Shown: positions 1,827-36,550 of the stretch, one piece after another
Layout of the letters: every line of letters begins with the position of its first letter
How positions within the stretch are numbered: position 1 is the first letter of the stretch
Assembly (NCBI GenBank): GCA_029781035.1
Contig: JAKOXK010000022.1
Coordinates: 1 to 64,000 of the forward strand
Reading direction: 5' to 3'
DNA length: 64,000 nucleotides
Source: Armatimonadota bacterium
Lineage (GTDB): Bacteria; Armatimonadota; Fimbriimonadia; Fimbriimonadales; Fimbriimonadaceae
Notes under the pieces: model-generated
Databases searched by the model: none
Told to the model about the DNA's origin: nothing
What the model saw: only the letters and a program-made list of their open reading frames with translations
Position numbers and translations under genes: made by a program

Positions 1827-2141
1827 ATGGCAGGAGCACCCACCATCCGAATCAGGGTCCGGGCCTACGACCACCGGATCCTTGACCAGAGCACCGAGAA
1901 GATCGCCGATTCGGCGAAACGCACGGGCGCCCGCATCAGCGGGCCGATTCCGCTTCCGACGAAGATACGGAAGTTCTGCGTGATCCGCGGTGCGCACATC
2001 GACAAAGAGTCGATGGAGCACTTCGAGCTCCGCGTCCACAACCGGCTCATCGACATCAAAGAGCCCACCAACAAGACGATCGATGCCCTGATGCGACTGG
2101 ACCTGCCCAGTGGCGTCGACATCGAGATCAAGACGGTCTGA
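1827..2141 (+). CDS. rpsJ: 30S ribosomal protein S10
   Basis: 104-residue S10 of the small-subunit head; it also acts in transcription antitermination as NusE in other bacteria. The sequence is typical from [16 protein letters not shown] through GPIPLPTK, the [21 protein letters not shown] segment and the C-terminal [10 protein letters not shown]. It sits 56 nt after tuf, in the normal tuf-rpsJ order, but it is followed by its own hairpin and then a large unrelated gene instead of rplC, so S10 is uncoupled from the rest of its operon. Confidence 0.98.
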
Positions 2142-2149
2142 AGGATTCA

Positions 2150-2176
2150 CGGCCCCGTGGCGTTGCCTCGGGGCCG
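2150..2176 (+). terminator. Hairpin after rpsJ
   Basis: Perfect 8-bp stem CGGCCCCG/CGGGGCCG (2150-2157 with 2169-2176) and an 11-nt loop, starting 8 nt after the rpsJ stop. It has no clear T-tract. It probably ends the tuf/rpsJ transcript. The rest of the gap to 2373 shows no gene. Confidence 0.55.
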
Positions 2177-2373
2177 CATTGTGTCTGGACCTCTTGAAGC
2201 TCTGTCGAGAACGTCCCATTTCATTGTCCCGGTGGCCAGATTCCCAGGTGTCTCGAATGTGACGGGTCGAAAACGTGAGAAGAGACGCAAGATTCACCGT
2301 ACTTTTCACAGGTTCTGTCGTACACTTCCTGTAGTCTTTGCTGGGTGCGTGTCTCAGCAGGCTTTGGATCACC

Positions 2374-5247
2374 ATGAGAATAGAGGAAACACCCGTTATT
2401 GCGGCCGTTGGCCCGCACTCAGTTGACACTCCGGACTACGGAACCGTCACCTTGGCAGCTTCACTCTACGAACGATGGAACACCGACGGCAAGGGAACCG
2501 TCGGATGGCCCGTCGCCGATTCCTTCACTTTGGCCGGAGGTGGAAACGCCGTCTATTGTGAGCGAGGCATGATCGTGGATCCGCCTCGGGGCGCGACCTT
2601 CATTGTTCAGGGCCGCATCTACGTCAAGTATCGCGCCCTCGGCGACGTTACAGGTTGGGTCGGGTTACCGACGTCAGACGAACAGGCTGCCCCCGGCAAC
2701 GGCAGGGTCTCCCACTTTCAGAACGCCGACATCTATTGGCGGTCAGACACGGGTGCCTACGAAGTGCATGGAGCGATCCGCGATCAGTTCCAGGCACAAG
2801 GGGGAACCGGAGGGTTCCTTGGATACCCACTGACGGACGAGAGCCCCGTCCTGCAAGGAGCCAGTGAGATTGGACGATTCAACCGGTTCCAGGGTGGCGT
2901 CATATATTGGAGCGGCCCGACAGGAGCATTTGAAGTCCACGGCGCCATTCGAGACCGTTGGGAGAACACCCACAAGGGGGCGACGGGCGATCTAGGACTC
3001 CCGTTGTCGAACGAACTGCGGACTCCGACCGACAGCTATCGTTATAGCAATTTCGAGCACGGCGTCATCGTGTTCCGCACTTCAGACGGTGCCTTGTTCA
3101 CGCTGACGCAGCTTGAGCTGTACCTCGCCAGGTTCGACAGCAAGGGCGACGACGGCTTTCTTCGGGGTTCCCAAGACGTGTACGTCCACGTGGACGTGAC
3201 CGCGAGCAGCGGCGAGGGCTATCACCAGAGGATGCCCTCCAGCGGCGACTACGGATCCGACGAGAACATCGAGCAAGTCATCATGACGATCGGTCGCATG
3301 CAGGGCGAAACCAGTGTCCACGTCAAGATGGACGGATGGGACTCGGACTGGCCCGATTCTGACGATCGCCTCGGCACAGTCGACCAAAACTACACCATCG
3401 AAAATCTGTGGGGCCTCGACGAGGACGCCACCCACTGGGTAGGCGACTTTATGGCCTCCTACAAGTTCAGGCAGATCGTCAACTACGATCCTACAAAGTT
3501 CAGGGAAAACCTGTATTGGCACTTCCACAATTTCGACACGGCAGAACTGTCGTGGCAGCAGTACGCGGCCACATTCAGCGACGTCAGCAACGACGAAAGC
3601 GTCGTGTGGCACCCGTTCGACCACGCTTATTACTCCTTGGTCTACAAAGGTGTGGCCAGTAGCGGCAACTGCTTCGGCATGTGCTGGGAATCGATCTTCG
3701 CCCAAGTCGGAAGGTCCATCTACCGTGAGCCGATCGCACTCGTGGCTCCGACGAACGGCAGCCGACCGGACCCGAACACCAACCACGAGGTCATCAACGA
3801 AGTCAATGTTAAGCACGGCTACCAAGTCAGCGGTGAGATGATCGACTGGTTCCTGGGGAAGTTCGTCCTCGGCCAGACTCACGACCCCGTCCGGGCGTTC
3901 AACGAGAGCCAGGCCCAGTTCGCGCAAGGTGACTACCCAGTCCTGGCCTTGACGAGCAAGAGCCTCTCCGTCGCCGGACATGTCGTCCGGCCTTATCGGT
4001 GGGACGATCTCGGCAACACGTTACGGATCTACATCGCCGATCCGAACAATCCGCTGACGGCCGCGACAGACGATCTGTCGTCGTTCATCGACATTGACAA
4101 GGCAAGCAACACGTTTACCTATCAGCACGGCGCCAACGATGTCTGGACGGGTGGCACGTGGTCAGGCGGGCGTATGTACTCGATCCCGTTTCACGTAGTC
4201 TGCCATCAGCCGAGAACGCCCTTCTGGGAAGTCCTCGGCCTGCTCGTGGCAGGAACAGTGATCATCCTGGGAGGTGACGCAGACACAGTACAGATTCGGG
4301 ATTCCAATGGCAAAACCTACTACGATCCGAACTTGACGGCTCCGCCGACGCTCCATGAACAAACGGCTAAAGACGAACAACGGATCCCCAACATGGCTCG
4401 GATCCATCTGACAGACGACGTGTCCGCGTTTCGGCGGCTCGTGACAAACCCGGGGCGGCTCTTCGTCACGCAAAAGAAGGCCCCTGAGGTGTACTACATG
4501 GCCCACACCCAGTCAAAACTCCACCTCGGGACTGAGCACACCCGTGAAACGCTGGGTTCGCGCGAGGTCATCGCGTCACTTGGTACAGAGGTCACCCCAT
4601 CACCGTCTCAACCAACGAACACGGAACACCTCCATTTCGAGCGCCCAGGCGGGAATCTGTCCGCCGCGAGCCGCTTTGCCGAGATCGCTGCGGTCCATCC
4701 TGGCAGTCCCCTGCCGACTGGAGCCTTGGAACACACGGTTCAGCAAGGAAGTGGGGCGTACACGTGGGGCGTGCGCAGCGCGCTGGGAGGAACGGTCGTC
4801 GAGGCACCTTGTATACAAGGCACTGCGGACCGGATCGTCGTGGAGAACGTTGGGACAGCCCAGCAGGCTTTGACACTCGATCCCGAGGGAGCCAAGACGG
4901 TCGCAATCCACGTCGCGGGCCGGTCAGACGTTCCGACAAGGGAGCGCTCGTTCACCGTGAGCGAAATGGCACTGAAGGCTGGACAGAAGATCCGGACGAT
5001 GATCGACGACGAAAGCGGCGCTCTTGTGATTGAGAACCCGGGCGATGCGACGCAAATGAACGTCGAGATTCGGTCGGGCGGACTCAACACGCAGCCGGCA
5101 GTCAGGACTGCCGTGCCCTTGGACGCCGCGAGCGTGACCAGGATCGCGCCGACCGCTTGGAGCCCGGCCACGATGGCGACGGTCAAGGTCAAGCTTGAGA
5201 AGCTTGACCGGATTGGCGGCGCACCCGTCAGCACCAGTGAGATCTGA
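2374..5247 (+). CDS. LGFP-repeat protein with papain-like cysteine peptidase domain
   Basis: 957 residues if started at ATG 2374; a TTG at 2338 is a weaker alternative. Residues about 40-250 hold at least four LGFP-type repeats (GWPVADSF, GWVGLPTSDEQ, GFLGYPLTDESP, GDLGLPLSNE), a module known from actinobacterial envelope proteins and thought to bind the cell wall. The middle carries what looks like a papain-fold triad: Cys433 in SGNCFGMCWES, His536 in AGHVVRPYRW, and Asp556/Asn558 in IADPNNP. The C-terminal ~300 residues look beta-rich and unassigned. No signal peptide is visible, which is odd for a wall-binding protein. The gene sits alone between rpsJ and rplC, with a terminator on each side. 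Peptidase activity is inferred from motifs. Confidence 0.75.
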   Translation: MRIEETPVIAAVGPHSVDTPDYGTVTLAASLYERWNTDGKGTVGWPVADSFTLAGGGNAVYCERGMIVDPPRGATFIVQGRIYVKYRALGDVTGWVGLPTSDEQAAPGNGRVSHFQNADIYWRSDTGAYEVHGAIRDQFQAQGGTGGFLGYPLTDESPVLQGASEIGRFNRFQGGVIYWSGPTGAFEVHGAIRDRWENTHKGATGDLGLPLSNELRTPTDSYRYSNFEHGVIVFRTSDGALFTLTQLELYLARFDSKGDDGFLRGSQDVYVHVDVTASSGEGYHQRMPSSGDYGSDENIEQVIMTIGRMQGETSVHVKMDGWDSDWPDSDDRLGTVDQNYTIENLWGLDEDATHWVGDFMASYKFRQIVNYDPTKFRENLYWHFHNFDTAELSWQQYAATFSDVSNDESVVWHPFDHAYYSLVYKGVASSGNCFGMCWESIFAQVGRSIYREPIALVAPTNGSRPDPNTNHEVINEVNVKHGYQVSGEMIDWFLGKFVLGQTHDPVRAFNESQAQFAQGDYPVLALTSKSLSVAGHVVRPYRWDDLGNTLRIYIADPNNPLTAATDDLSSFIDIDKASNTFTYQHGANDVWTGGTWSGGRMYSIPFHVVCHQPRTPFWEVLGLLVAGTVIILGGDADTVQIRDSNGKTYYDPNLTAPPTLHEQTAKDEQRIPNMARIHLTDDVSAFRRLVTNPGRLFVTQKKAPEVYYMAHTQSKLHLGTEHTRETLGSREVIASLGTEVTPSPSQPTNTEHLHFERPGGNLSAASRFAEIAAVHPGSPLPTGALEHTVQQGSGAYTWGVRSALGGTVVEAPCIQGTADRIVVENVGTAQQALTLDPEGAKTVAIHVAGRSDVPTRERSFTVSEMALKAGQKIRTMIDDESGALVIENPGDATQMNVEIRSGGLNTQPAVRTAVPLDAASVTRIAPTAWSPATMATVKVKLEKLDRIGGAPVSTSEI

Positions 5248-5263
5248 AGCCCTGGCTGGAAGC

Positions 5264-5295
5264 AAGGCCCCCGCCGCAAAGGCGGCGGGGGCCTT
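5264..5295 (+). terminator. Strong terminator after the LGFP-repeat gene
   Basis: Perfect 14-bp stem (5264-5277 with 5282-5295) around an AAAG tetraloop; the stem ends in CCTT then GTG. It lies 16 nt after the stop and cleanly separates this gene from the ribosomal operon. Confidence 0.85.
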
Positions 5296-5721
5296 GTGCG
5301 TATGTCGGGCCTTGGTCGAACCGAGTCCCTGATTCGATTTTGAGAAGCAAAACTAAGATCCTCACCTTTTCGGCGAACACTCAAGGCTTTGTGCGAGTCG
5401 TTGATTTGTTGGCCAGGCATGGCCCTGGCCGTAAAAGGTGGATGAGCGTGAGAAGGGGAATGACGGGGCATCCAAGTCCGGTGCCAGCCACGCATGACAG
5501 GACGGCTCGGCCTTGTTCGAGACGTGCACTTGTGGGCCCGCGCGCTGCCACTGAGACACGTCTTAGCCTCTCGCTTACCAAGGGGCGACGTCAGCTCGTC
5601 CATTTCTCCTGCGGTGTCCCCGCCTGTTTGGGGCCCCTCTTCTTCCAGGCGATTGGGGGAGATACTCGTGAACTGGTATGGGCCGTAGGTGCGACAGGAG
5701 CATACAGAAAGCCTGGGCCCG
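5296..5721 (+). other. Non-coding gap before the S10 operon promoter
   Basis: About 430 nt with no convincing gene on either strand. The plus frame that runs into rplC stays open through here, but its translation is rich in Arg, Ser, Pro and Gly, has no recognisable domain and contrasts sharply with the L3 sequence after 5973. A short near-palindrome around GGCCAGGCATGGCCCTGGCC (about 5411-5430) is the only structured element I noted. Confidence 0.5.
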
Positions 5722-5750
5722 GTGACCGTCCCATCGAGTTCTGGTATAGT
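5722..5750 (+). promoter_or_regulatory. Probable promoter of the rplC-rplE operon
   Basis: GTGACC (5722-5727), a 17-bp spacer and TATAGT (5745-5750) form a good sigma70-type promoter, with TGG immediately before the -10. It would give a leader of roughly 215 nt before rplC, consistent with rplC being the first gene of this transcript now that rpsJ is elsewhere. Confidence 0.6.
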
Positions 5751-5972
5751 CTCAGCGCTCGGACAACGAGCCTGAAGTCACGGCTTCAAGTGCCATCGCG
5801 CGGTAACCCAATTCGGGGCTCTGCCAAGGGTGCGGTCGGTACGCGGGAAGCTGGCGACAGGACAAGCCTGAGACAATTCGGTCGTCGGCCGGAGTGCCTG
5901 CCGCAGTGCGGGTTCTCTGACCGGCGTCTCAAACCCCTGGGAGACCAGGGCAGATCCAGTACGGAGGAAAGA
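5751..5972 (+). promoter_or_regulatory. Long leader of the rplC operon
   Basis: About 215 nt untranslated leader. It can form several hairpins, including CCCTGG/CCAGGG with a GAGA loop at 5935-5950, just before the ribosome binding site GGAGG at 5963-5967. In E. coli the S10 operon leader is bound by L4 for autoregulation; a similar role here is possible, but no sequence match to that leader was recognised. Confidence 0.4.
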
Positions 5973-6599
5973 TTGCTACCAGGGATCCTAGGTACGAAAG
6001 TTGGGATGACCCACGTCTTTGACGACGAGGGACGGTTCATTCCTGTCACGGTCATAGAGGCCGGTCCGGTCTACGTCACACAGGTCAAGACACCGGAGAA
6101 GGACGGCTATAGTGCCGTGCAAGTGGGTTTTGGCGATCAGAGCGACAAGCACCTGACCTTTCCCAAGTTCGGACATTTGAAGAAGGCCGGGCTGACGAAG
6201 AACGTCCGGCACTTGCGCGAGTTCCGAGTGGACGCTGTGGACGGGTTCGAGCCGGGCCAGGCGATCACAGCCGAAATCTTCAGCGCAGGCGAAGAGATCT
6301 CGGTGACAGGGACGAGCAAGGGTCGCGGCTTCGCGGGCGGCGTGAAGCGCCACCACTTCAAGGGCCAGCACATGACCCACGGTTACATGACCCACCGCAG
6401 GCCGTTGTCGAGCGGTGCCACGGGACCTCAGCGCGTGTTCAAAGGCACGAAGAAGCCCGGCCATATGGGCGACGAGAAGGTGACTCAGAAGGGTCTCAAG
6501 GTCGTCGCTGTGGATGCGGAGCGCAATCTGGTCTTGGTCAGCGGAAGCGTTCCCGGAGCGAACGGTTGCCTCGTGACGATCAACAAGGAGGCCAAATAA
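5973..6599 (+). CDS. rplC: 50S ribosomal protein L3
   Basis: 208-residue L3, an early-assembling large-subunit protein reaching toward the peptidyl transferase centre. Family sequence begins with LPGILGTKVGMTHVFDDEG and includes KGRGFAGGVKRHHFKG and RVFKGTKKPGHMG. The start is TTG 5973: GGAGG lies 5 nt upstream and homology begins exactly there. The open frame continues about 210 codons upstream, but that part does not look like protein. The central loop reads GYMTHRRPLSSGATGPQRV, slightly different from the usual SHGSHFHR-type sequence. First gene of the 13-gene operon. Confidence 0.96.
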   Translation: MLPGILGTKVGMTHVFDDEGRFIPVTVIEAGPVYVTQVKTPEKDGYSAVQVGFGDQSDKHLTFPKFGHLKKAGLTKNVRHLREFRVDAVDGFEPGQAITAEIFSAGEEISVTGTSKGRGFAGGVKRHHFKGQHMTHGYMTHRRPLSSGATGPQRVFKGTKKPGHMGDEKVTQKGLKVVAVDAERNLVLVSGSVPGANGCLVTINKEAK

Positions 6600-13386: not shown

Positions 13387-13914
13387 GTGAGCACCAAGCC
13401 AGACAATGTCTCTTGGCTGACGGAGGCGGAATACGAGTCGATGCCTGATTGGGAGAGAGCGCTCGTGTGGGCTGCGTCCCAAGTCGGTGTCGAAGAGGAG
13501 CCGCGAGGATCGAACCGCGGCCCTCAAGTCGAAGCCTATCTGGCGAGCTGCGGGCTGGAGCCAGGTAACCCCTGGTGTGACGCCTTCGTCAAATGGTGTC
13601 TGCTCAAGGCCGTTGCCGAACCGGACCGGCTGACTGGCGTGACCGGCAGCGTGCGGCGTACGTTCGAACATGCACAACGGCTGGGTGCCCTCCGCCACCG
13701 GCCCTTACGCGGGTTTCTGGGTGGACACCTGAATCCCGATGGTACCGGCCACATTTACTTCATCACGGGGGTGAACAGTGACGGGACTTGGCAGACGATC
13801 GAAGGCAACACGAACACTGGAGGCAGCCGTGAAGGCTACGGTGTGTTCCGCCGGCGGCGAAGCATGACTCCCTCCACCTTCTTCGTCAGCGTGGACGCCC
13901 TCCTGAATCCGTAG
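13387..13914 (+). CDS. CHAP-like amidase/peptidase domain protein
   Basis: 175 residues resembling CHAP-type cell-wall hydrolases often found in phage and bacterial lysins. Key features: EEPRGSNRGPQVEAYLASCG, the putative nucleophile Cys in GNPWCDAFVKWC (about residue 64), a His in GTGHIYFITGV and the IEGNTNTGG segment. No signal peptide is visible. The start GTG 13387 has GGAAGGAGAAG just before it. A short hairpin (CGCTGG/CCAGCG, 13353-13375) lies upstream. Its 3' end overlaps the convergent mannosidase gene by 29 nt. Confidence 0.8.
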   Translation: MSTKPDNVSWLTEAEYESMPDWERALVWAASQVGVEEEPRGSNRGPQVEAYLASCGLEPGNPWCDAFVKWCLLKAVAEPDRLTGVTGSVRRTFEHAQRLGALRHRPLRGFLGGHLNPDGTGHIYFITGVNSDGTWQTIEGNTNTGGSREGYGVFRRRRSMTPSTFFVSVDALLNP

Positions 13915-16900
13915 CCTGTTTCTTGTTGAGCTTGAGTCTGAAGCACTGAATCTCGAACTTGTGGAGCGCGAGCGGGATGCTGTCAGACACAGGCTTGGCG
14001 TCACCGAGCTTGTCCTCGATGAAGTTCACGCTGGAGGCGCCCGCGACGGGAACGTTCACGTGAAGCGAACCCTTCGCTCCCTGCCCTCCGGCATCATAGA
14101 GGTGGACGATCAGATCGTCGCTACCTTCCGCTCTCTTGACGCCAGTCACAAGGACGTTGAGGTCGCTGACTCCGAGCAGCGACCACTGGCGAGGGGCATT
14201 TCCGTGCCCGTCGAAGGGAACCGTGGCCGTCATGAGCGGCGCTTGGAATTCATCACCAAGTCGAGGGAGGGAAGCGGTCCGGTAGTCTCCCTTGTGCGGC
14301 ACAATCGCGTATCGCCAGTGGAAGTGGCCAGGGTTGGGGTCAGGATCCGGACCGGTGCTGGAGCGGATCATGCTGAGACGCAAGACGTTGCCTTGGCACG
14401 AGTAACCGCTCTTCGAGTCGTTCAGCACGGCGATTCCGTTGTTCCCGTCACTGACGTCGGCCCAGTTAAGGGCCGCGCACTCCTGGCCGTCCGTTGGCCG
14501 GGTCAGAGCCCCAAAGGGGACTTCGTAGGTGGCCGTCGGATTCCTCAGGCCGGTGTCAAAGGCGACACGGAGCAGAGGCGCGCCGTACTCGCTGGTCCCG
14601 ACAGCCTGCCAGTTGCAGTCCACGTCCACGATGATCTCGCGGCCCTCGAGGTGGAAGGTCTGTTTGAGGGTGCTCTCCCCAGTCTTTGTGCCGCCCCACG
14701 GAATGGAGTGCGTGAAGGAGACCCAGCCCGGACCCGATCCATGGCTCACGACCGGACAGTTTTGGACGTTCTGAACCTTTCCCAGCACCCACGCGCTCAT
14801 GCCGTCGTCGTGCTCGGTGTTGAGCTCAGGAAGGCCAAAGGTGCCGACAAAGTCCATGGTTCGAGTACCGGCACTGACCTCTCGAATCCTCGTGACCGCA
14901 CCTGTTTCTTTGTTGAAGGCGATGCCGAGCCTGTCGTTCACAAGGTCGAGGCCGCTCTCGAAGCTGGGATCGTCCGACGGATCGTGGGGGATCGCTTGGA
15001 TATGCGACGGCAGGCTTCTGCCTTGTTGCGGACCATTGTGAATGTGGAAGACCTTCCATCCAAAGGCAGGCACGTCCGTCGCTTCGAACTCTGCCAAGTG
15101 ACTGATTGGGTCGAGCTCCTTGACGGGTACAGACTTACCAGTCGGATCGTCAGCGACGCAGTTCTTCGTGTCGAGTCCACGTCCAGACCAGCCGCTGGTC
15201 ACCAGCCATGTCCGGACCATTCCTGACCGTGCCCAGCCGCTCGGGTTGAAGACCATCAGACTGATCCCGTCGGCGTATGGCGTTTGCCGGATCGACAGCG
15301 TCTCAAGAGCGCGCGTCTCGATATCCCTGTCGTCGGCGAGAACGCGGCCCAAAACGGTCTTTGTCCGTTCGTAAGGGGCATGAATGCCGGAGCCGGGCAA
15401 CGTGTCGTGGTGGTGGTTGAAGCAGATGTCGGTCCAATTCTGCTTGAACGCCTCGTGCGGATAGGCGTAACCGAACAGCGAAGCCACTGTGGCCACCGCC
15501 TCGGCCGAACCCGTCGTGTACTCAGCGTGTCGGTTGAGTTGCTTGACCTCGGCGTGTGAGGTGTAACAGCCGTCGAAGACGGGATTGAGCTCTTGGTTGA
15601 CGACCGGGATCTTGGTCAGGTCGTACGTACGCAGCTTGTCGAAGAACTGAGTCGCGGTCGAGAACTTGACCTTTGGCTTCGCCGGATCCTTCATCCAGCT
15701 CAGTGCTGTCTCGATGTACTCGCGCGAGGGCCCACCGCCGTGGTTGCCGATCCCATAGACCCAGAGCATGTCTTTGGAACCCGTATTGTCCTGGAAGTCC
15801 AGCATCTCCTGGAACTGCTTGTAACTGAGGTCAGAGTTGTACCAAGAGCCGCTGGCGGGCTCGTCAAAGCTCAGCATTTTCGTTCCGTCCAAGCCTTCCC
15901 ACCAGAAGAGGGGCTTGCCCTTGCCGCCCCGGCAGAAGTAGTACGAGGTACAGCCGCCCAACTTCAGGATCTGGGGCATCTGGATGGTGTGTCCGAAGGT
16001 GTCCGGTTCCCAGCCGACCGTCGCGGTCTTGCCAAAGTTCTCGCGAAAGTAAGTCTGCCCATAGAGGAACTGACGGATGTGCGATTCCGGAGAGATCATG
16101 TTCGTGTCTCCTTCGCAGACACGTCCGCCGACGATCTCCCACTGTCCGGCCTTCACCTTCTGCTGGATCTTCTTGAAAAGGTCGGGCCAGTTCTCTTGGA
16201 TTGTCTCGTAGAGACACGACGAGCTTTGACTGAAGGTGAAGCCAGGAAACTCATCCATGAACTTGGTCGCTTGGTTGAACGTGTCGTAGGCAGCAACCAT
16301 GCCCTCCTGCCATTCCCAGAGCCATTGGAGGTCAATGTGGGCGTGCCCGACCAAGTGTCCGGTGTACTTCTCCATTTCGGGGTGGGCGTGCGACATCGCG
16401 TGTTGCGCTGTATGGAGGATCTGCTCGATGGTGTCCGGGCCGACCTCTTCGGACTGCATCTTGGTCAGCATCGATTCCGCCTCGTCGAGATGTACTTGAA
16501 GTTCAGGGTTGGGGTTGCGCTTCAGGAATTTGCGGACGAAGTCGAGGTCGTGTTGGATCGAAGCGACCTTCTGCTGCTGCTTTCCCAGGTTCACTGCCTT
16601 TTGCACGGCTGCCTTTGTGTCGTTCGTAACTAGATCCACTGGCACCTGTACGAGCGAAGGGTTTTCGGTGTACCCGTTGTGGCTCTCGACGTCCATCATG
16701 GGGATCGCGCCCCCACCATAGACGACCTCCTTGCTCCCGTCCTTGTGCTCGACCACAAGGTCACGCAGGAACTGGCAATACTGCCCGTCCTTGTCCCCCT
16801 CCTCGTCCATCTGCCAGGCCGTCGCCGTTCGCCCTGCGACGGCATCCATCGGGAAATGCCGCGTGTACCACTTGCCGATCGCTTGTGGTAGCTCTCCGTC

Positions 16901-17218
16901 GCCGTGCCCGCGAATTCCGTTCTGATCGACGATCCCCAACTCCCGAAAGTCGTCGCCACGGTCGAACTTGATGTCGATTCCGCCCTTGGGCATCGGGTTG
17001 GCCGGATCCAAGAGGATTGTGTAAGCAAGAGTATCGCCCGCTCGGAACGTGACCCTCTTGTTGGCGAACGTGACATAGGTGTACCAGTTCCCATTGCCCT
17101 TAGCGAGGTTGGTCGTGACGAAAGCAAGGCACGTCGCGTCTTGACCGGACTGCGGACGACTCATGACGATGGCCAAAAGCAACGGCGTGAGCGAAAGGCA
17201 CGCGGGAACGCGGAGCAT
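13886..17218 (-). CDS. Secreted GH38 alpha-mannosidase-like glycosidase
   Basis: 1110 residues with an N-terminal hydrophobic signal (about 1-25). After a ~260-residue N-terminal region comes a GH38 catalytic domain: HLVGHAHIDLQWLWEWQEG (metal-binding His and Asp), then VGWEPDTFGHTIQMPQIL, in which Asp406 is the expected nucleophile, and YYFCRGGKGKPLFWWEG. The remaining part matches the beta-sandwich domains of the family. It likely hydrolyses alpha-mannosides outside the cytoplasm; exact specificity is unknown. It overlaps the CHAP gene tail-to-tail. A CATACT box lies 7 nt upstream of the ATG. Confidence 0.9.
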   Translation of the reverse strand: MLRVPACLSLTPLLLAIVMSRPQSGQDATCLAFVTTNLAKGNGNWYTYVTFANKRVTFRAGDTLAYTILLDPANPMPKGGIDIKFDRGDDFRELGIVDQNGIRGHGDGELPQAIGKWYTRHFPMDAVAGRTATAWQMDEEGDKDGQYCQFLRDLVVEHKDGSKEVVYGGGAIPMMDVESHNGYTENPSLVQVPVDLVTNDTKAAVQKAVNLGKQQQKVASIQHDLDFVRKFLKRNPNPELQVHLDEAESMLTKMQSEEVGPDTIEQILHTAQHAMSHAHPEMEKYTGHLVGHAHIDLQWLWEWQEGMVAAYDTFNQATKFMDEFPGFTFSQSSSCLYETIQENWPDLFKKIQQKVKAGQWEIVGGRVCEGDTNMISPESHIRQFLYGQTYFRENFGKTATVGWEPDTFGHTIQMPQILKLGGCTSYYFCRGGKGKPLFWWEGLDGTKMLSFDEPASGSWYNSDLSYKQFQEMLDFQDNTGSKDMLWVYGIGNHGGGPSREYIETALSWMKDPAKPKVKFSTATQFFDKLRTYDLTKIPVVNQELNPVFDGCYTSHAEVKQLNRHAEYTTGSAEAVATVASLFGYAYPHEAFKQNWTDICFNHHHDTLPGSGIHAPYERTKTVLGRVLADDRDIETRALETLSIRQTPYADGISLMVFNPSGWARSGMVRTWLVTSGWSGRGLDTKNCVADDPTGKSVPVKELDPISHLAEFEATDVPAFGWKVFHIHNGPQQGRSLPSHIQAIPHDPSDDPSFESGLDLVNDRLGIAFNKETGAVTRIREVSAGTRTMDFVGTFGLPELNTEHDDGMSAWVLGKVQNVQNCPVVSHGSGPGWVSFTHSIPWGGTKTGESTLKQTFHLEGREIIVDVDCNWQAVGTSEYGAPLLRVAFDTGLRNPTATYEVPFGALTRPTDGQECAALNWADVSDGNNGIAVLNDSKSGYSCQGNVLRLSMIRSSTGPDPDPNPGHFHWRYAIVPHKGDYRTASLPRLGDEFQAPLMTATVPFDGHGNAPRQWSLLGVSDLNVLVTGVKRAEGSDDLIVHLYDAGGQGAKGSLHVNVPVAGASSVNFIEDKLGDAKPVSDSIPLALHKFEIQCFRLKLNKKQATDSGGRPR

Positions 17219-21436: not shown

Positions 21437-23368
21437 TTGCCAACCCTTTCAATGAGAAGGTCACGAAAGCGCGGAGCGGCCCTGGTCCTGACGCTAGGAG
21501 TCATGACCCTTGTCGCCCTTGCAGCCGCGTCCTACCTCAGCATCGCGACCCAAACCATCCGGGACGCCGGACACAATCTGCGAGACATTCAGACCACGCA
21601 CTTGTGTGAAGCAGGTCTCCAGGCGGTTCAGAGGACACTTTGGAGGCCGTTCCGGCAGTCACAGAAGTTCACTGACATGGTCAATGCCTGTCAGGGTGCC
21701 GACGTCGGCAACGAGAAAGTGGTCACGACGGGCGAAGTGCCTGGCGTGGGCCGGTTTTCGGCTGCCGTGATCGGCTTCAGCCAGCCCAATACGTACCTGG
21801 CGGTGGTCAAGATCCGTTCGATCGGCTTCATTGACCGCAATAGCAACGGAGTCCTGGACAACGGCGAATCTTTCCGCCAAGTGGACACCGTGGCGCGGTT
21901 CGAGCTGTCACGGAGCCAAGTCTTCGACTACACGTACTTCATCAACAACTACGGGTGGTGGGACGGATTTGGCGCGAACGACGCCATCATCAACGGGGAC
22001 ATGCGGGCAAACGGGAACTTCGACTTCACGAACGGCTCGCCAACCGTCAACGGCACGGTGATCGCCTGCGCCAACGACAAACTCGACCCGAAAGTCAACG
22101 GCATCATCAACACGCCACCGGTCAAGTGGTCAGACTCGACTTACTCGTCAGCGTGGAACAACGTCAATACGTCGTCCCGCGAGCGCTGGCGACCGCCGTA
22201 TGACGCGTCCAAGTACGGGAACGTCGGCACTTCGACCTTCACGAACTGGCGAGACATGGTGTTCGAATCAAACGCTCAGTGGGTCAACGGATACACGAGC
22301 GGGAACACCTTCATTCCGCCGAGCTCGTTCGGCGCCGTCCAGGCTGACTCGCGCGGAATGAGTAGCTGGGACCGACAGTCCTCGAACGGAACTGTCACGA
22401 CGAACCTGCTTGACACGAAGCCGACGACCGAAGTGGTCATGCCGGACTTGAGCGACATCAGCCAGTACCAGCAGTTGAGCGCGAACTTCGGGGCCGATCC
22501 CGGCAACTATCAGAAGAAGTTCTACGCTGACGGAACGGCAAACCCGAACTACGGCTCACCTGCGTTCGTAGACGTCTGGAACACGGCGCAGAACAAGTAC
22601 GTCCGCCTCAGCGACTCTAGCGGCCAGATCAGCGGAAGTGCCGTTCTTGTCGGCACTTCGACCCACCCGATCAAGCTGTATGGGCCGGTGACGGTGAGTC
22701 AGGACGTCGTGATCAAGGGCTACGTCGCTGGTCAGGGCACGCTCTATGCCGGTCGCAACGTCCAGATCGTCGGTAGCGTGCGGTACTCCAGTCCACCGAG
22801 CTGGCTCGGTAGCGACCCGCAGGCGAACGACTACGCCAACGAAAAGAAGGACATGCTCGGACTCGCCGCCCGTGGTTCCGTCATTATGGGCGACCCGACG
22901 ACCTTCTCGTACCCGTACCCGCTCTACTACATGATGCCGCCCTTCACTCACGGTCGGTACGACGACAACGGGAACTACATTCCCGCGTTCGACGCCACGA
23001 AGACCGATTCGACGGGCCGGAAGCTGTATCAGAGCGTCGTGTCGGACACGATCATCCATGGAATGGCCGAAGGTGTCAACCAGATCGACGCCATCCTCTA
23101 CACGAACTTCGTTGGTGGTGGAAACGTCGGAACCGGCGGACAAGGCATCAACTTCAACGGGACGATCGTCAGCAAAGACGAGTCGATCGTCACCTGGAGC
23201 CTACCGATCCGGATGAACTACGATACGCGGATCCGCGAGCGCGGCCCTGACAACCCTCCGTTGATCGACCTACAGATGCCGCGACAGCCAACGCTCATGC
23301 GCAGCACGTGGCAAGACAAAGGGTTCTACGACTTCGGCAGTGGTCAGGGAACCGGAGGCCAGCAGTAA
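21437..23368 (+). CDS. Large PilX/GspK-like pilus-associated protein
   Basis: 643 residues. The N-terminus SRKRGAALVLTLGVMTLVAL is the basic-plus-hydrophobic segment of PilX N-terminal-domain proteins; Glu5 is absent, as in GspK. The rest is a large exported region rich in Asn, Gly, Ser, Thr and Tyr with long beta stretches. The TTG at 21437 is taken as start because AAGGAG lies 8 nt upstream; ATG 21452 is possible. The stop overlaps the next ATG (TAATG). It may be a tip or adhesin-type subunit of the pilus encoded here. Confidence 0.75.
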   Translation: MPTLSMRRSRKRGAALVLTLGVMTLVALAAASYLSIATQTIRDAGHNLRDIQTTHLCEAGLQAVQRTLWRPFRQSQKFTDMVNACQGADVGNEKVVTTGEVPGVGRFSAAVIGFSQPNTYLAVVKIRSIGFIDRNSNGVLDNGESFRQVDTVARFELSRSQVFDYTYFINNYGWWDGFGANDAIINGDMRANGNFDFTNGSPTVNGTVIACANDKLDPKVNGIINTPPVKWSDSTYSSAWNNVNTSSRERWRPPYDASKYGNVGTSTFTNWRDMVFESNAQWVNGYTSGNTFIPPSSFGAVQADSRGMSSWDRQSSNGTVTTNLLDTKPTTEVVMPDLSDISQYQQLSANFGADPGNYQKKFYADGTANPNYGSPAFVDVWNTAQNKYVRLSDSSGQISGSAVLVGTSTHPIKLYGPVTVSQDVVIKGYVAGQGTLYAGRNVQIVGSVRYSSPPSWLGSDPQANDYANEKKDMLGLAARGSVIMGDPTTFSYPYPLYYMMPPFTHGRYDDNGNYIPAFDATKTDSTGRKLYQSVVSDTIIHGMAEGVNQIDAILYTNFVGGGNVGTGGQGINFNGTIVSKDESIVTWSLPIRMNYDTRIRERGPDNPPLIDLQMPRQPTLMRSTWQDKGFYDFGSGQGTGGQQ

Positions 23369-29040: not shown

Positions 29041-31206
29041 ATGTTGGGCCCCTTGCTTCTCGCCCTTGTAACAAAGGACCCTTACGTTGAAATAAACAGA
29101 CTCGTAGAGGCACGAGACGTTTCCGGATTGGCAAGTTGGACGTCCCAAGAGCTTACGAAACAAGGGGTCTTTGGATTCCTCAAAACAGGAGGTGCCTACG
29201 GGGTCGGAAGATCTGCCTGGCACGCTCTAAGGCTCGACGAAGTCTCGGGAGGAAAACACCTTGTTGTCGTCTCCACGAACTTGACCTGTGAAGACATGGG
29301 TGCCCAAGTGTTCGAGCTCAAGAACGGCGTACTGTCCTCTCGGATCCCCGAAAGCGACGACAACGGCGTGCGGATCAAGCGATGGGACTTCGACGTGCGC
29401 TTCGATCTCCCTACCAAGAAGGCGATCATTCGTGCTGTCACCTCGTTTCATTCAGATCATGACGGTCCGTTTCTCGTCCGGCTGTCACCACAGTACGAAG
29501 TGTCAAAGGTGACCGACGCCTCGGGGCACAGCGTTCCTTTTGCCGAGGCAGGCGGCGTCGTGTCCTTGCCCAGGCCCCAGCAGCACGAGTTCGTTTACAC
29601 ATTGGACTATGAGGGCGTCGTCGACCAGCCTCGATATGCAGGTGCGGTGACGAAAGACGAGGCCGTGCTGACTCAAGACTACTGGTATCCGATGGTCGCC
29701 CGGCAACCGGCTCCCTTTCGGGTGACGGTCCACGCCCCCAAAGAGTGGATCGTCGTCGCTCAAGGCGATAAGGTTGGCGAAAATGATGCCGGGGCAGAGA
29801 AGGCCGTGACGTTCCAGATGGATCTTCCCGTGTCCTACCTGAGCTTGTGCGCGGGGGCCTATCGCGAAGTGTCGAAGACCGTGAACGGGCGGCGCTACCA
29901 TGTCTGGTCGCGCACTATGCCTGAACCTGACATGCAGACTCAACTCGACATGCTCCCAGCCGTCATTGAGTTCTACGACAGGAACCTGGCCCCCTATCCG
30001 TTCAAGAGCTTCGGCGACGTCATTACACCCCTCTATGGGGGTGGAGCGCTGGAAGCGTACTCCTTTGCCACTTATGGTTCAGGCTGGCTTCCAGCAAACG
30101 AAGGGCACGAGCCTTCCCACACCTGGTTCGGAGGGATGCTCGACAACACCTACCTCGGAAGCCTGTGGGACGAGAGCTTTGCCGACTGGTGCGACGGGCT
30201 CTACCACCGTCGTTCCCCAATCGGCGTCACTGCAGAGACGGAGACCGCCCAGATGCCGAGCCCAGAGCCCAGTGCCGAGTACGACCACGGAGCCTGTTTC
30301 AACACGGGTGCGGAGTCCGGTCCAGTCGCCTCATCCTTGGGATACGGTAAGGGAGCCGCCGTCCTCCTTCAAATGGAGCAGGAGTTCCCTCAGACTCTCG
30401 AGTGGGCTCGGGAGTGGCTCAAGAGAAGACCTTCCGCGCGGGCCTCCGATTGGGCTGACTTTGAAGCGGTCTGTGGCCCGTCGACCCAGTGGTTTTTCGA
30501 TCAGTGGATCAAGCGAACCGGATGGCCACACTTTTCAATCCAGAACGTCCGGTATTCGCAAGGCGCGGTCCGAGGGGAAGTCGACTTCGATGGCGCACCG
30601 TACCGCCTGACTGTCGACGTGTTCGTCAGGGACAAGGACGGCGAACACACCCGAAAGGTCGTCTTAAACCCAAAATCGTTGGCGCGCAGTCAGTTCGAGA
30701 TAGAAGTTCCTCGCAAGCCTACGCTGGTGTCGTTCGACCCCTGGGAGCGGCTCTTGATCCGGCACGACGGCGAGCGCGAGGAATTGAGCCAGTTCCTCGC
30801 GAAATCGGAACGATACGTGGCACCTGGATACGATGAATGGGCCCGTTCTTGGCGTGACTTGGCGCCCTCGAATGCGCTCAAGACGCTTCCAGCCAAGCTC
30901 GACGGATTGACGATTATCGGGGGCGTAAAGGTCTCGCCCTTGATCGCAAAGGCACTTCGCAGTGAAGGGCTTGAGGTCAGTGGCGATAAGCTGACCTACC
31001 GAGGGACAACCGTCGACTTGTCGCACGGTGCCGCGGCCTGTCTGGTCGACCTGCCCGACGGAGGACGGTGTGCCGTCCTCCTGGGAAAGACGCGGGTGAC
31101 GCCCGAAATCGGGCATGCCCGACTGGGACTGTGGGACGAATATGGTCGGATGTTGCGGGCTCGGACGAGCCCAGTGACCTCAGGGCCGCTCGCCTTTCGA
31201 ATTTGA
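29041..31206 (+). CDS. M1-family-like metallopeptidase
   Basis: 721 residues. A short hydrophobic N-terminus (MLGPLLLALV) may be a weak signal. Middle region: the GAMEN-type segment reads GGALEAYSFATYG and the zinc motif HEPSH lies in NEGHEPSHTWFGGML, with a downstream Glu in SLWDESFADW. Spacing from HExxH to this Glu is 17 residues, one less than the usual 18 of M1 aminopeptidases. Probably a zinc peptidase; substrate unknown. The TGA stop overlaps a TTG start of the next gene, suggesting coupling. Confidence 0.8.
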   Translation: MLGPLLLALVTKDPYVEINRLVEARDVSGLASWTSQELTKQGVFGFLKTGGAYGVGRSAWHALRLDEVSGGKHLVVVSTNLTCEDMGAQVFELKNGVLSSRIPESDDNGVRIKRWDFDVRFDLPTKKAIIRAVTSFHSDHDGPFLVRLSPQYEVSKVTDASGHSVPFAEAGGVVSLPRPQQHEFVYTLDYEGVVDQPRYAGAVTKDEAVLTQDYWYPMVARQPAPFRVTVHAPKEWIVVAQGDKVGENDAGAEKAVTFQMDLPVSYLSLCAGAYREVSKTVNGRRYHVWSRTMPEPDMQTQLDMLPAVIEFYDRNLAPYPFKSFGDVITPLYGGGALEAYSFATYGSGWLPANEGHEPSHTWFGGMLDNTYLGSLWDESFADWCDGLYHRRSPIGVTAETETAQMPSPEPSAEYDHGACFNTGAESGPVASSLGYGKGAAVLLQMEQEFPQTLEWAREWLKRRPSARASDWADFEAVCGPSTQWFFDQWIKRTGWPHFSIQNVRYSQGAVRGEVDFDGAPYRLTVDVFVRDKDGEHTRKVVLNPKSLARSQFEIEVPRKPTLVSFDPWERLLIRHDGEREELSQFLAKSERYVAPGYDEWARSWRDLAPSNALKTLPAKLDGLTIIGGVKVSPLIAKALRSEGLEVSGDKLTYRGTTVDLSHGAAACLVDLPDGGRCAVLLGKTRVTPEIGHARLGLWDEYGRMLRARTSPVTSGPLAFRI

Positions 31207-34828: not shown

Positions 34829-36433
34829 TCAGAGCGGCTGTTCGCTGTGGAAGTACGTGATCACGTAGCCAGAGCGAGTGCGCTCGAGGCCCCACTCGTG
34901 GCGGACTGATTCACGGTTGCCCCACGAGTCGATGAACTCGTGGACGGCGAACACGGTTGCCCGATCCCCGTCGTGACGCACGTCCTTGATCTCGTAATCG
35001 GTCGTTTGAGTGCCTTCCACGACGTCGCGGAGCATGTCGTAGAAGTCGCTCCCACCGACCGAGTACGCATCTTGCCCGCTCATATCGATCTCGATCCGTC
35101 CCTGGTCGGGGATCAAGTGGGTGAGATAGCGCATGGAGCGACCCTCAAACGACCTCTGAAGGTCAGCGACCGAGGCGTCGAGCGCAGAATAGGATCCTAC
35201 ATAGTCGCCGTAAAGGTCGTACCGGGGTGTGTGCCAGTAGTAGCTGGTTGTGCACCGGATCCAGGTGATCGGTCCAAAGTGGATGCGGGTGCAGTCAACG
35301 TAGCCGGGCACATTCCAGTACCAATAGAACGGGGACGGGGCGTAGTTGCAGCCTTCGTACCAGTTGAACCCGTACCACGGATACCAGAAGTCGGTGTCAC
35401 ACCAACCACGGTCGTACTGCCAATACCCGCTGCGGTACCGACCGTCGCCAATGTGAACCCGGTTTTCGCGGTTCACTTCGTGGTCGATGCGTTGGTGGGA
35501 TCCAAGCACCGGGATCTGGATCTTGAAGGAAGGCCTAGACTTGACGCCGTTGTAGTTGTGGGCACCGTCGTAGTTGACTTGTCCACTGCGCGAGTTGCCG
35601 TTGCGTTTGCCGAGGACGCCACGACCGATGCCGGACAGGCCGCCGTTACCGCTACCATGAGAGCTCCCGGAACCGTAGCCACCGTTCTGGGAGCCACCGT
35701 TGCCCAGGCCGCCATAGCCGCCGGAATTGCCGCCACCATTACCGCCGGATCCGCCGCCGTGTCGGGGAGGAGGATCGCCTTTGCCGACGCCGTTGCCGCC
35801 ATTGTTTCCGCCTCCGCCGTTGTTTCCGCCACCTTTGCCGCCACCCTTTTTGCCAAGACCTTCGTCTTGGCGGTAGAAGCTGGCGTAACTGCTAGATCCC
35901 GAGCGAGGGTCCGGACGACCTAGGATGGAGCTCCTACCGGACCGATCGTCCTCGTTACTCGATCTTGACCTGTATCCCGAACCACGTGTACTCCACGACG
36001 AATGGCTCTGGTTCACGGAAGATCCGGAACTCGAAGAGTTGTTGAATCCGTGGAACCCACTCCCGGCATAGGATCCGCCCTGGCTGCCCGAGTTGGGCCG
36101 TCCGAGGCTGGCGTTGTTACTGCCGGTGGGACGTCCCTGCGACGACCGGTTGATCACGCCCGAAGAGGGTCCTATCCCTGAAGAGCGCGAGGACTGCTGG
36201 TTGCGAACAGTGGAGCCGCCTGAAGTGGGCCGTGGATGGCTGTTTCTGTTCCTGGCCGTGTCTCCGCTGGTCCTGACCGGCGTCACGCGCACCGACGAGC
36301 CAGACGACTTCGAACTGCTGTGTGAGGCAGTCGCATGACCGCCTTCGCCTTTCTTGCCCAGGCCACCGCTCTGCGCTGTGGCCAGCGAACAGACTGTGAC
36401 CAGGGCAAGGAAAATGAGTGAACGCCGTTTCAT
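34829..36433 (-). CDS. Secreted Gly/Ser/Asn-rich protein with aromatic C-terminal domain
   Basis: 534 residues from ATG 36433. Signal peptide MKRRSLIFLALVTVCSLATA. Residues about 22-300 are low-complexity Ser/Gly/Asn/Arg-rich sequence, including long GGNNGG-type runs. The C-terminal ~230 residues are a distinct domain full of Tyr and Trp with six Cys (RGWCDTDFWYPWYGFNWYEG, then YAPSPFYWYWNVPGYVDC), ending in DVRHDGDRATVFAVHEFIDS. Not recognised. Composition suggests an extracellular matrix, adhesin or surface-layer-like protein. AGGAAAGA precedes the ATG. Confidence 0.85.
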   Translation of the reverse strand: MKRRSLIFLALVTVCSLATAQSGGLGKKGEGGHATASHSSSKSSGSSVRVTPVRTSGDTARNRNSHPRPTSGGSTVRNQQSSRSSGIGPSSGVINRSSQGRPTGSNNASLGRPNSGSQGGSYAGSGFHGFNNSSSSGSSVNQSHSSWSTRGSGYRSRSSNEDDRSGRSSILGRPDPRSGSSSYASFYRQDEGLGKKGGGKGGGNNGGGGNNGGNGVGKGDPPPRHGGGSGGNGGGNSGGYGGLGNGGSQNGGYGSGSSHGSGNGGLSGIGRGVLGKRNGNSRSGQVNYDGAHNYNGVKSRPSFKIQIPVLGSHQRIDHEVNRENRVHIGDGRYRSGYWQYDRGWCDTDFWYPWYGFNWYEGCNYAPSPFYWYWNVPGYVDCTRIHFGPITWIRCTTSYYWHTPRYDLYGDYVGSYSALDASVADLQRSFEGRSMRYLTHLIPDQGRIEIDMSGQDAYSVGGSDFYDMLRDVVEGTQTTDYEIKDVRHDGDRATVFAVHEFIDSWGNRESVRHEWGLERTRSGYVITYFHSEQPL

Positions 36434-36452
36434 GGTCTTTCCTGTGCTTTTC

Positions 36453-36458
36453 ATAATA
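36453..36458 (-). promoter_or_regulatory. -10 box for the Gly/Ser-rich protein gene
   Basis: TATTAT on the minus strand, 19 nt before the ATG; a short leader with AGGAAAGA follows. No convincing -35 was found. Confidence 0.45.
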
Positions 36459-36550
36459 CAGGACGTGCCGCTCATGAAACTCTTACGAGACCAGAAGACT
36501 TTGCGAGCTCAGGCCGTGACAGGGCAGTGTCCACGTGGCAGGTCGACACG

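What the first reader, a model, noticed from the sequence alone, without database searches (positions are those of the whole stretch)
2374..5247. LGFP repeats fused to a papain-like triad in one protein
Residues Cys433 (GNCFGM), His536 (GHVVRPY) and Asp556/Asn558 (DPNNP) look like a papain-fold catalytic set placed after several LGFP wall-binding-type repeats. LGFP modules are best known from actinobacteria. No signal peptide is visible, so how it leaves the cytoplasm is unclear. This could be a toxin, a wall peptidase or a secreted effector.
Basis: partly seen in the sequence, partly recalled or inferred. Interest (0 to 1): 0.6.

Follow-up and report, generated by a model that had tools for sequence, protein, structure and literature searches.

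The report
Wall-binding cysteine enzyme without export signal
A bacterial gene makes a large protein that joins sugar- or wall-binding repeats, a membrane-binding-type domain and a predicted papain-like cutting enzyme, belongs to an unnamed family scattered over about eight bacterial phyla, and has no visible signal for leaving the cell.

Summary
Window 2374-5247 (+) encodes a 957-residue protein with LGFP repeats (Pfam E 7.8e-42) fused to a domain with the papain order Cys433-His536-Asp556/Asn558. Cys433, His536 and Asn558 are invariant in 38 of 38 aligned sequences; position 556 is Asp in 34 and Asn in 4. The catalytic domain alone aligns best with papain-like enzymes (18 of the top 20 rows), but weakly (best Z 7.2), and has no Pfam, NCBIfam or PDB sequence match. 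One genome-collection scan found 40 related loci. All 23 full-length proteins tested carry LGFP and none has an evident signal peptide, whereas a sister branch without LGFP does. The gene is lone and accessory, in a gap between rpsJ and rplC. Best reading: a cytoplasm-stored, surface-targeted cysteine hydrolase that acts on other cells after release, working like fungal papain-like chimerolectins; this last step is inference. New family within a known fold; moderate interest.

The parts
2374..5247 (+). LGFP-C2-papain-like protein, 957 aa (alternative TTG start at 2338 adds 12 aa)
   Evidence: full-length homologues
2440..3108 (+). LGFP repeat domain, residues 23-245; motif-like sites at residues 43, 96, 149, 207
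   Evidence: PF08310; VIA-align 2 to 6swz Z 23.1, 212 aligned, rmsd 2.2
3109..3486 (+). C2 domain, residues 246-371, with acidic residues D260, D268, D323, D325, D330, D331
   Evidence: (3jzy Z 10.1, 111 aligned, rmsd 3.5); no Pfam C2 match
3487..4311 (+). papain-like catalytic domain, residues 372-646
3670..3672 (+). Cys433, predicted nucleophile
   Evidence: invariant 38 of 38
3979..3981 (+). His536, predicted catalytic base
   Evidence: invariant 38 of 38
4039..4047 (+). Asp556-Pro557-Asn558, predicted third catalytic residue
   Evidence: 556: D 34, N 4 of 38; N558 38 of 38
4219..4275 (+). hydrophobic segment, residues 616-634, shared by the LGFP branch; modelled as helix 617-626 then strand 627-634
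4348..4707 (+). mostly low-confidence linker, residues 659-778
   Evidence: much of it under pLDDT 50
4714..5244 (+). C-terminal beta-rich region, residues 781-957, function unknown
   Evidence: 28% identity to the L102 homologue
5263..5296 (.). perfect 15-bp inverted repeat, 4-nt loop, just after the stop: possible hairpin without a T run
   Evidence: not called by the terminator scan
1827..2141 (+). rpsJ (S10), upstream flank
5742..5873 (+). DNA also found upstream of rplC in a same-genus genome (G001): right edge of the accessory stretch
   Evidence: a sigma-70-like site at 5722-5750 overlaps it
5973..6599 (+). rplC (L3), downstream flank (TTG start read by eye)

Best explanation
An accessory, horizontally moving multidomain cysteine hydrolase (protease or amidase). 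SHOWN by sequence or model: LGFP domain, C2 domain, papain-like catalytic domain with invariant Cys/His/Asn, variable C-terminal beta region, no evident signal peptide, no conserved partner gene. INFERRED: the protein is made and kept in the cytoplasm and gets out when the cell lyses, is eaten, or by an unknown non-Sec route; the LGFP part (and, in 13 of 23 members, an added LamG/concanavalin-like domain) holds sugar or wall of another cell; the C2 domain holds membrane lipid when calcium is present, so that binding is switched on outside the cell; the cysteine domain then cuts protein or peptidoglycan there. It would work like the fungal lectin-protease MOA, an intracellular defence protein, without being a relative of MOA's lectin.
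For: LGFP in 23 of 23 aligned full-length members, Laminin_G_3 in 13. LGFP fold Z 23.1, C2 fold Z 10.1. Motif invariance. For the domain model 18 of the top 20 rows are papain-like enzymes by name: staphopain (Z 7.2), IdeS/Mac-1 (6.0), C39 peptidase of PCAT1 (5.9), phytochelatin synthase (5.8), AvrPphB (5.2); the tied top row is a Bacteroides T6SS effector domain (7.2) that I did not classify, row 20 a lysin. Acidic residues at 260, 268, 323, 325, 330, 331 in 19 to 23 of 23. Best 10-residue hydropathy mean in the first 45 residues 0.18-1.77 in 23 of 23 LGFP members, against 2.8-3.6 in 14 of 19 frames of the sister branch. No Pfam family recurs in more than 3 of 91 neighbour proteins. Patchy: full-length match in 2 of 113 genomes of the class, none in the 3 same-genus genomes. 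MOA listed as intracellular and nematode-directed in PMC6126850 (passages).
Against: The fold match of the catalytic domain lies under the Z 8 that the tool treats as clear, and Foldseek gave no hit under E 1e-3 (best 9e-3). No curated papain-like family matches any of 38 members. Four members (L101, L103, L104, L105) lack several C2 acidic residues and have Asn at 556, so calcium dependence cannot be universal. LGFP in the only structurally studied case binds corynebacterial wall (PMC11299179, passages), not eukaryotic sugar. Nothing shows release, target or activity; the hydropathy test is crude.
Confidence: 0.42

Rival explanations
1. Cargo of a contractile injection system (eCIS or T6SS): the missing signal peptide is explained by direct loading into a phage-tail-like machine.
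For: Pvc16_N (PF14065; eCIS role recalled) is in 11 of 24 genomes that hold the family (25 handles given, L119 not held), including G009. One top fold match is a T6SS effector domain.
Against: The own genome has neither PF14065 nor a Phage_sheath_1 match. Background is high: 11 of 101 in the sample of the window's relatives and 22 of 58 in relatives of Algoriphagus, centre included. No injection genes among the neighbour families listed.
Confidence: 0.15
2. Wall hydrolase acting on an envelope, its own or another's, the LGFP part anchoring it to peptidoglycan as in phage lysins and MytA.
For: LGFP of MytA binds peptidoglycan-arabinogalactan (PMC11299179). LGFP stretches of actinophage lysins match (phrog_2998 endolysin). 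Glutathionylspermidine amidase and the T6SS amidase Tae1 are in the fold list.
Against: No export signal. In phages only the LGFP end matches (query residues 1-309 in the 20 of 90 rows shown); no relative in viral contigs with the pattern used. The C2 domain suits membranes.
Confidence: 0.2
3. Internal protease of the producer, calpain-like in logic (C2 plus papain-like), acting on its own proteins.
For: No signal peptide; C2 domain; calpain-5 core appears low in the fold list (Z 3.1).
Against: LamG and LGFP are surface- or sugar-binding types; the gene is accessory and scattered over phyla, unlike a housekeeping regulator.
Confidence: 0.15
4. Non-enzymatic protein with a papain-like fold.
For: Position 556 is Asn in 4 of 38; weak fold match.
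Against: Cys, His and Asn invariant in 38 of 38 over two deeply separated branches.
Confidence: 0.08

Closest known systems
MytA/PS1 of Corynebacterium glutamicum, LGFP domain (PDB 6swz, 6sx4)
   Same: LGFP fold over residues 23-245: Z 23.1, 212 aligned, rmsd 2.2, 25% identity
   Different: MytA carries a mycoloyltransferase in a mycolic-acid bacterium; here C2 and cysteine domains in an Armatimonadota-type genome
MOA / PSL1a, fungal papain-like chimerolectins (link to PF18021/PF18022 recalled; those families named in PMC10318531)
   Same: lectin-type module plus papain-like cysteine domain; MOA intracellular (PMC6126850 table); PSL1a with Ca2+-dependent proteolysis (PMC5256987, abstract start in search listing)
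   Different: beta-trefoil lectin there, LGFP/LamG here; no Pfam match; calcium would act through a C2 domain here (inference)
Staphopain (C47), IdeS, C39 peptidase of PCAT1, AvrPphB (C58), phytochelatin synthase
   Same: papain-like fold in the domain comparison, Z 5.2-7.2
   Different: about 7-14% identity; no HMM match for any of 38 members; LGFP and C2 not part of them (recalled)
BtaeB C-terminal domain, T6SS effector of Bacteroides fragilis (PDB 9jdd)
   Same: first row in Foldseek (E 9e-3) and tied first in VIA-align 2 (Z 7.2)
   Different: solved with an immunity partner; no recurring small partner here; no paper on it found
Actinophage lysin A proteins with LGFP repeats
   Same: LGFP stretch
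   Different: catalytic part not shared
Signal-peptide-bearing Armatimonadota/Zipacnadia proteins (L031-L048, L125-L139)
   Same: same catalytic domain, Cys/His/Asn kept
   Different: no LGFP in 8 of 8 tested; clear N-terminal hydrophobic segment

Membership tests
LGFP repeat (PF08310) | matches the profile above the curated cut-off | tested here: met
   141.9 bits against 22
LGFP repeat (PF08310) | fold of the MytA LGFP domain | tested here: met
   Z 23.1 to 6swz
Papain-like cysteine peptidase superfamily | Cys-His-Asn/Asp in this order, Cys at the start of a helix, His and Asn/Asp with the following strands | tested here: met
Papain-like cysteine peptidase superfamily | fold similarity to solved members | tested here: inconclusive
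   18 of the top 20 rows papain-like but best Z 7.2; Foldseek E 9e-3
Papain-like cysteine peptidase superfamily | match to a curated papain-like family model | tested here: not met
   none for P0001 or any of 38 domain members
Papain-like cysteine peptidase superfamily | Cys-His distance and hydrolytic activity | not testable with these tools
   model coordinates not exposed; no bench
C2 domain | C2 fold | tested here: met
   nearly all of rows 3-50 are C2 domains or C2-bearing proteins by title, best Z 10.1
C2 domain | Pfam C2 profile match | tested here: not met
   no such match to P0001 at E up to 10
C2 domain | acidic calcium ligands in the loops | tested here: met
   acidic at 260, 268, 323, 325, 330, 331 in the window protein; partly lost in L101, L103, L104, L105; role as ligands recalled, not measured
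MOA-type papain-like chimerolectins | beta-trefoil lectin and PF18021/PF18022 match | tested here: not met
   only LGFP matches in Pfam
eCIS cargo | producer has an eCIS | tested here: not met
   PF14065 and PF04984 not found in the own genome, 96% complete
Phage endolysin | lysin catalytic domain shared | tested here: not met
   phage matches confined to query residues 1-309 in the 20 of 90 rows shown

The most novel reading that the evidence does not exclude
Bacteria of many phyla share, by gene transfer, a signal-less 'store and release' protein built like fungal chimerolectins: sugar-binding LamG/LGFP modules, a calcium-switched C2 domain and a new papain-like protease, kept idle in the low-calcium cytoplasm and active when a grazer or rival opens the cell.
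Probability: 0.2. Interest if true: 0.75.

Novelty: new variant of a known kind. Interest (0 to 1): 0.5.

Why it matters
It adds a cysteine-hydrolase family that Pfam and NCBIfam do not model, spread over eight phyla by record title, with a repeated design (LamG/LGFP + C2 + papain-like) and no export signal. If the release-and-bind reading is right, it would be a bacterial counterpart of fungal lectin-protease defence, testable in cultured carriers such as Algoriphagus chordae or Luteimicrobium xylanilyticum. If it is an ordinary wall hydrolase, it still carries LGFP binding far beyond mycolic-acid bacteria.

Tried and rejected
eCIS link: looked promising at 11 of 24 genomes; set aside after the background searches and the empty own genome. 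Four eCIS regions were fetched (L151-L154) and not analysed.

Viral origin: the viral-contig scan found 5 pattern matches, none a relative; phage and plasmid tblastn hits cover only the LGFP end in the rows shown. Defence system: no PADLOC match for 4 proteins.

Conserved neighbour or immunity gene: none (91 of the 130 neighbour ORFs were scanned, chosen by eye; frames that looked like antisense or noise were dropped).

Chimeric assembly: not excluded, but GC by codon position of the gene (0.602, 0.465, 0.735) fits neighbours and DNA upstream of rplC is shared with a same-genus genome.

The first genome-contig scan with the single protein found nothing; alignment A1 was needed. Its pattern, [GA]xGGNC[YF]GM, does not match the window protein itself (SSGNCFGM), so counts are lower bounds.

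Family names C58, C39, C47, NlpC/P60: considered (likeness of the DPN motif to C58 is recalled, not tested by alignment); no HMM support, so not filed there. Families absent from the VIA-align list are not excluded. A literature lead, the Ruminococcus cellulosome module PDB 4EYZ (PMC3573020, abstract and passages), has Cys109/His215/Gln230; our profile did not match it at E up to 10.

Not found in print: 'LGFP' with 'extracellular contractile injection' (0 papers); 'LGFP repeat' with 'papain' (2 mycobacteriophage lysin papers, listing only); 'LGFP' with 'C2 domain' and 'cysteine protease'; 'LGFP' with 'Armatimonadetes'; 'LGFP repeat' alone (11 papers, listing only except one passage of PMC2447325). 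The papain-like survey PMC10318531 does not hold the word LGFP in its main text.

Full report
What was claimed and what is there. The finding names a protein at window 2374-5247 with LGFP repeats and a papain-like residue set. The frame is open and 957 residues long. Pfam finds LGFP at E 7.8e-42 and nothing else at E up to 10; NCBIfam finds nothing of note (best E 0.078, far under its cut-off). The window is the start of an 86-kb contig of a 3.42-Mb, 98-contig genome. Its family-mate G009 is 'Armatimonadetes bacterium 55-13' by record title (same contig as L102).

Relatives. The single protein found one full-length homologue among 61 genomes searched, G009, 47% identical. A phylum search with residues 243-957 matched 21 of 291 genomes, mostly over residues ~373-655. 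An alignment of 20 such domains (A1) then found 40 loci in genome contigs: 24 close ones (L101-L124), 15 distant ones (L125-L139) and one partial (L140). By title the 24 close loci lie in Actinomycetota, Armatimonadota, Acidobacteriota, Pseudomonadota, Chloroflexota, Bacteroidota, Cyanobacteriota and Nitrospirota. Several are not labelled MAG (Gilvibacter, Parapedobacter, Algoriphagus, Luteimicrobium, Nodosilinea), so the spread is not only mis-binning. A further sample of 96 genomes around a cyanobacterial carrier held the domain in 11. In the tree of 38 domains the window groups with rows labelled Armatimonadota, Actinomycetota, Acidobacteriota, Chloroflexota and Pseudomonadota (89/95, not starred), and the 23-row LGFP branch is parted from the distant branch (100/100); the mixing of phyla suggests gene transfer.

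Architecture. Of 23 full-length proteins (window plus 22 of the 24 close loci; L117 and L119 dropped because their N-terminal frame is broken) all 23 have LGFP and 13 also Laminin_G_3. AlphaFold2 on this alignment gave mean pLDDT 76.5, pTM 0.58. Against the PDB, residues 23-245 match the MytA LGFP domain (Z 23.1) and residues 246-371 match C2 domains (best Z 10.1; nearly all further rows shown are C2 domains or C2-bearing proteins by title). The window protein has acidic residues at 260, 268, 323, 325, 330 and 331; these columns are acidic in 19, 19, 23, 19, 22 and 19 of 23. That such residues bind calcium in C2 domains is recalled knowledge.

Catalytic domain. Cys433 begins helix 433-444, His536 lies in strand 535-545 and Asp556 follows strand 549-555 (the same order in the domain model, pLDDT 79.6, pTM 0.76). 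Over 38 sequences N386, G431, N432, C433, G435, M436, H536 and N558 never vary; 556 is D in 34 and N in 4. In the second-look comparison 18 of the top 20 rows are papain-like enzymes by name, the other two being a T6SS effector domain (9jdd) and a lysin (22oc) that I did not classify; best Z 7.2 over 138-151 residues. This is consistent but weak: the tool counts under 8 as possibly a common arrangement, and Foldseek found nothing under E 1e-3 in the PDB or among viral proteins. No family model matches and the profile matches no PDB sequence beyond chance. I call it papain-like by motif and, tentatively, by fold, and an unmodelled family.

Export. In the LGFP branch the best 10-residue hydropathy mean within the first 45 residues is 0.18-1.77 (23 of 23, of which L101 is cut by the contig end and L109 lacks a sure start). 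In the sister branch it is 2.8-3.6 in 14 of 19 frames; the other five are cut by the contig end (L035, L039, L047, L048) or longer than the span tested (L034). None of eight sister proteins tested has LGFP. So the two branches differ both in LGFP and in export signal, and the LGFP form has no visible way out. A hydrophobic stretch after the catalytic domain (616-634) recurs in most LGFP members and is modelled as helix plus strand, not as a clear membrane span.

Contractile injection was tested as a way out. PF14065 occurs in 11 of 24 carrier genomes searched, but in 11 of 101 genomes around the window's own and in 22 of 58 around one Bacteroidota carrier, and the own genome has neither PF14065 nor a sheath gene. 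I do not count it as support.

Setting. The gene lies between rpsJ and rplC. In 21 loci compared (20 relatives and the window), both genes were on the stretch in 9: gaps of 354, 359, 414, 1,325, 1,339, 2,007, 2,359 and 2,668 bases in eight relatives and 3,838 in the window; in the other 12 rplC was not found on the stretch, some of which end early. So this junction is loose in the family and the place itself is not remarkable. DNA just after rpsJ (to about window 2144) and upstream of rplC (5742-5873 and from 5961) is shared with same-genus genomes, which bounds the accessory stretch. A perfect 15-bp inverted repeat follows the stop. No sigma-70-like promoter was seen upstream of the gene.

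Reading. The domains say: hold a surface, hold a membrane when calcium is there, cut. Lack of a signal, a lone accessory gene and mixing of phyla fit a protein that works on other cells after release. The nearest working model is fungal MOA, an intracellular lectin-protease directed at nematodes (PMC6126850, passages; PMC13324453, abstract, outline and reference passages). This is likeness of design; membership in the MOA family is not met. Protease versus amidase cannot be decided: both kinds are in the fold list.

Score. Firm for LGFP and C2, good for the papain-like reading, open for function. Interest 0.5.

Noticed in passing
window 2142-5972 and loci L081-L100: In this family the rpsJ-rplC junction of the S10 cluster is loose: gaps of 354 to 3,838 bases with different ORFs inside, or rplC not on the same stretch. 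tuf-rpsJ is also apart in some.
   Followed up: partly
L101, L103, L104, L105: The same four proteins that have Asn instead of Asp at position 556 also lack several acidic C2 residues: a linked change, or shared descent.
   Followed up: no
L031-L048, L125-L139: A second, signal-peptide-bearing branch of the same catalytic family in Armatimonadota/Zipacnadia/WS1 has no Pfam match along its length (8 of 8 tested).
   Followed up: partly
L140:3921-5678: A Ruminococcus protein with List_Bact repeats and GGNCYGM/GHAV/YD motifs: the family may extend to Bacillota surface proteins.
   Followed up: no
window 13886-17218 (-): Glycoside hydrolase family 38 alpha-mannosidase.
   Followed up: no
window 21437-23368 (+), 29041-31206 (+), 34829-36475 (-): Long ORFs of 643, 721 and 548 aa without any Pfam match at 1e-5.
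   Followed up: no
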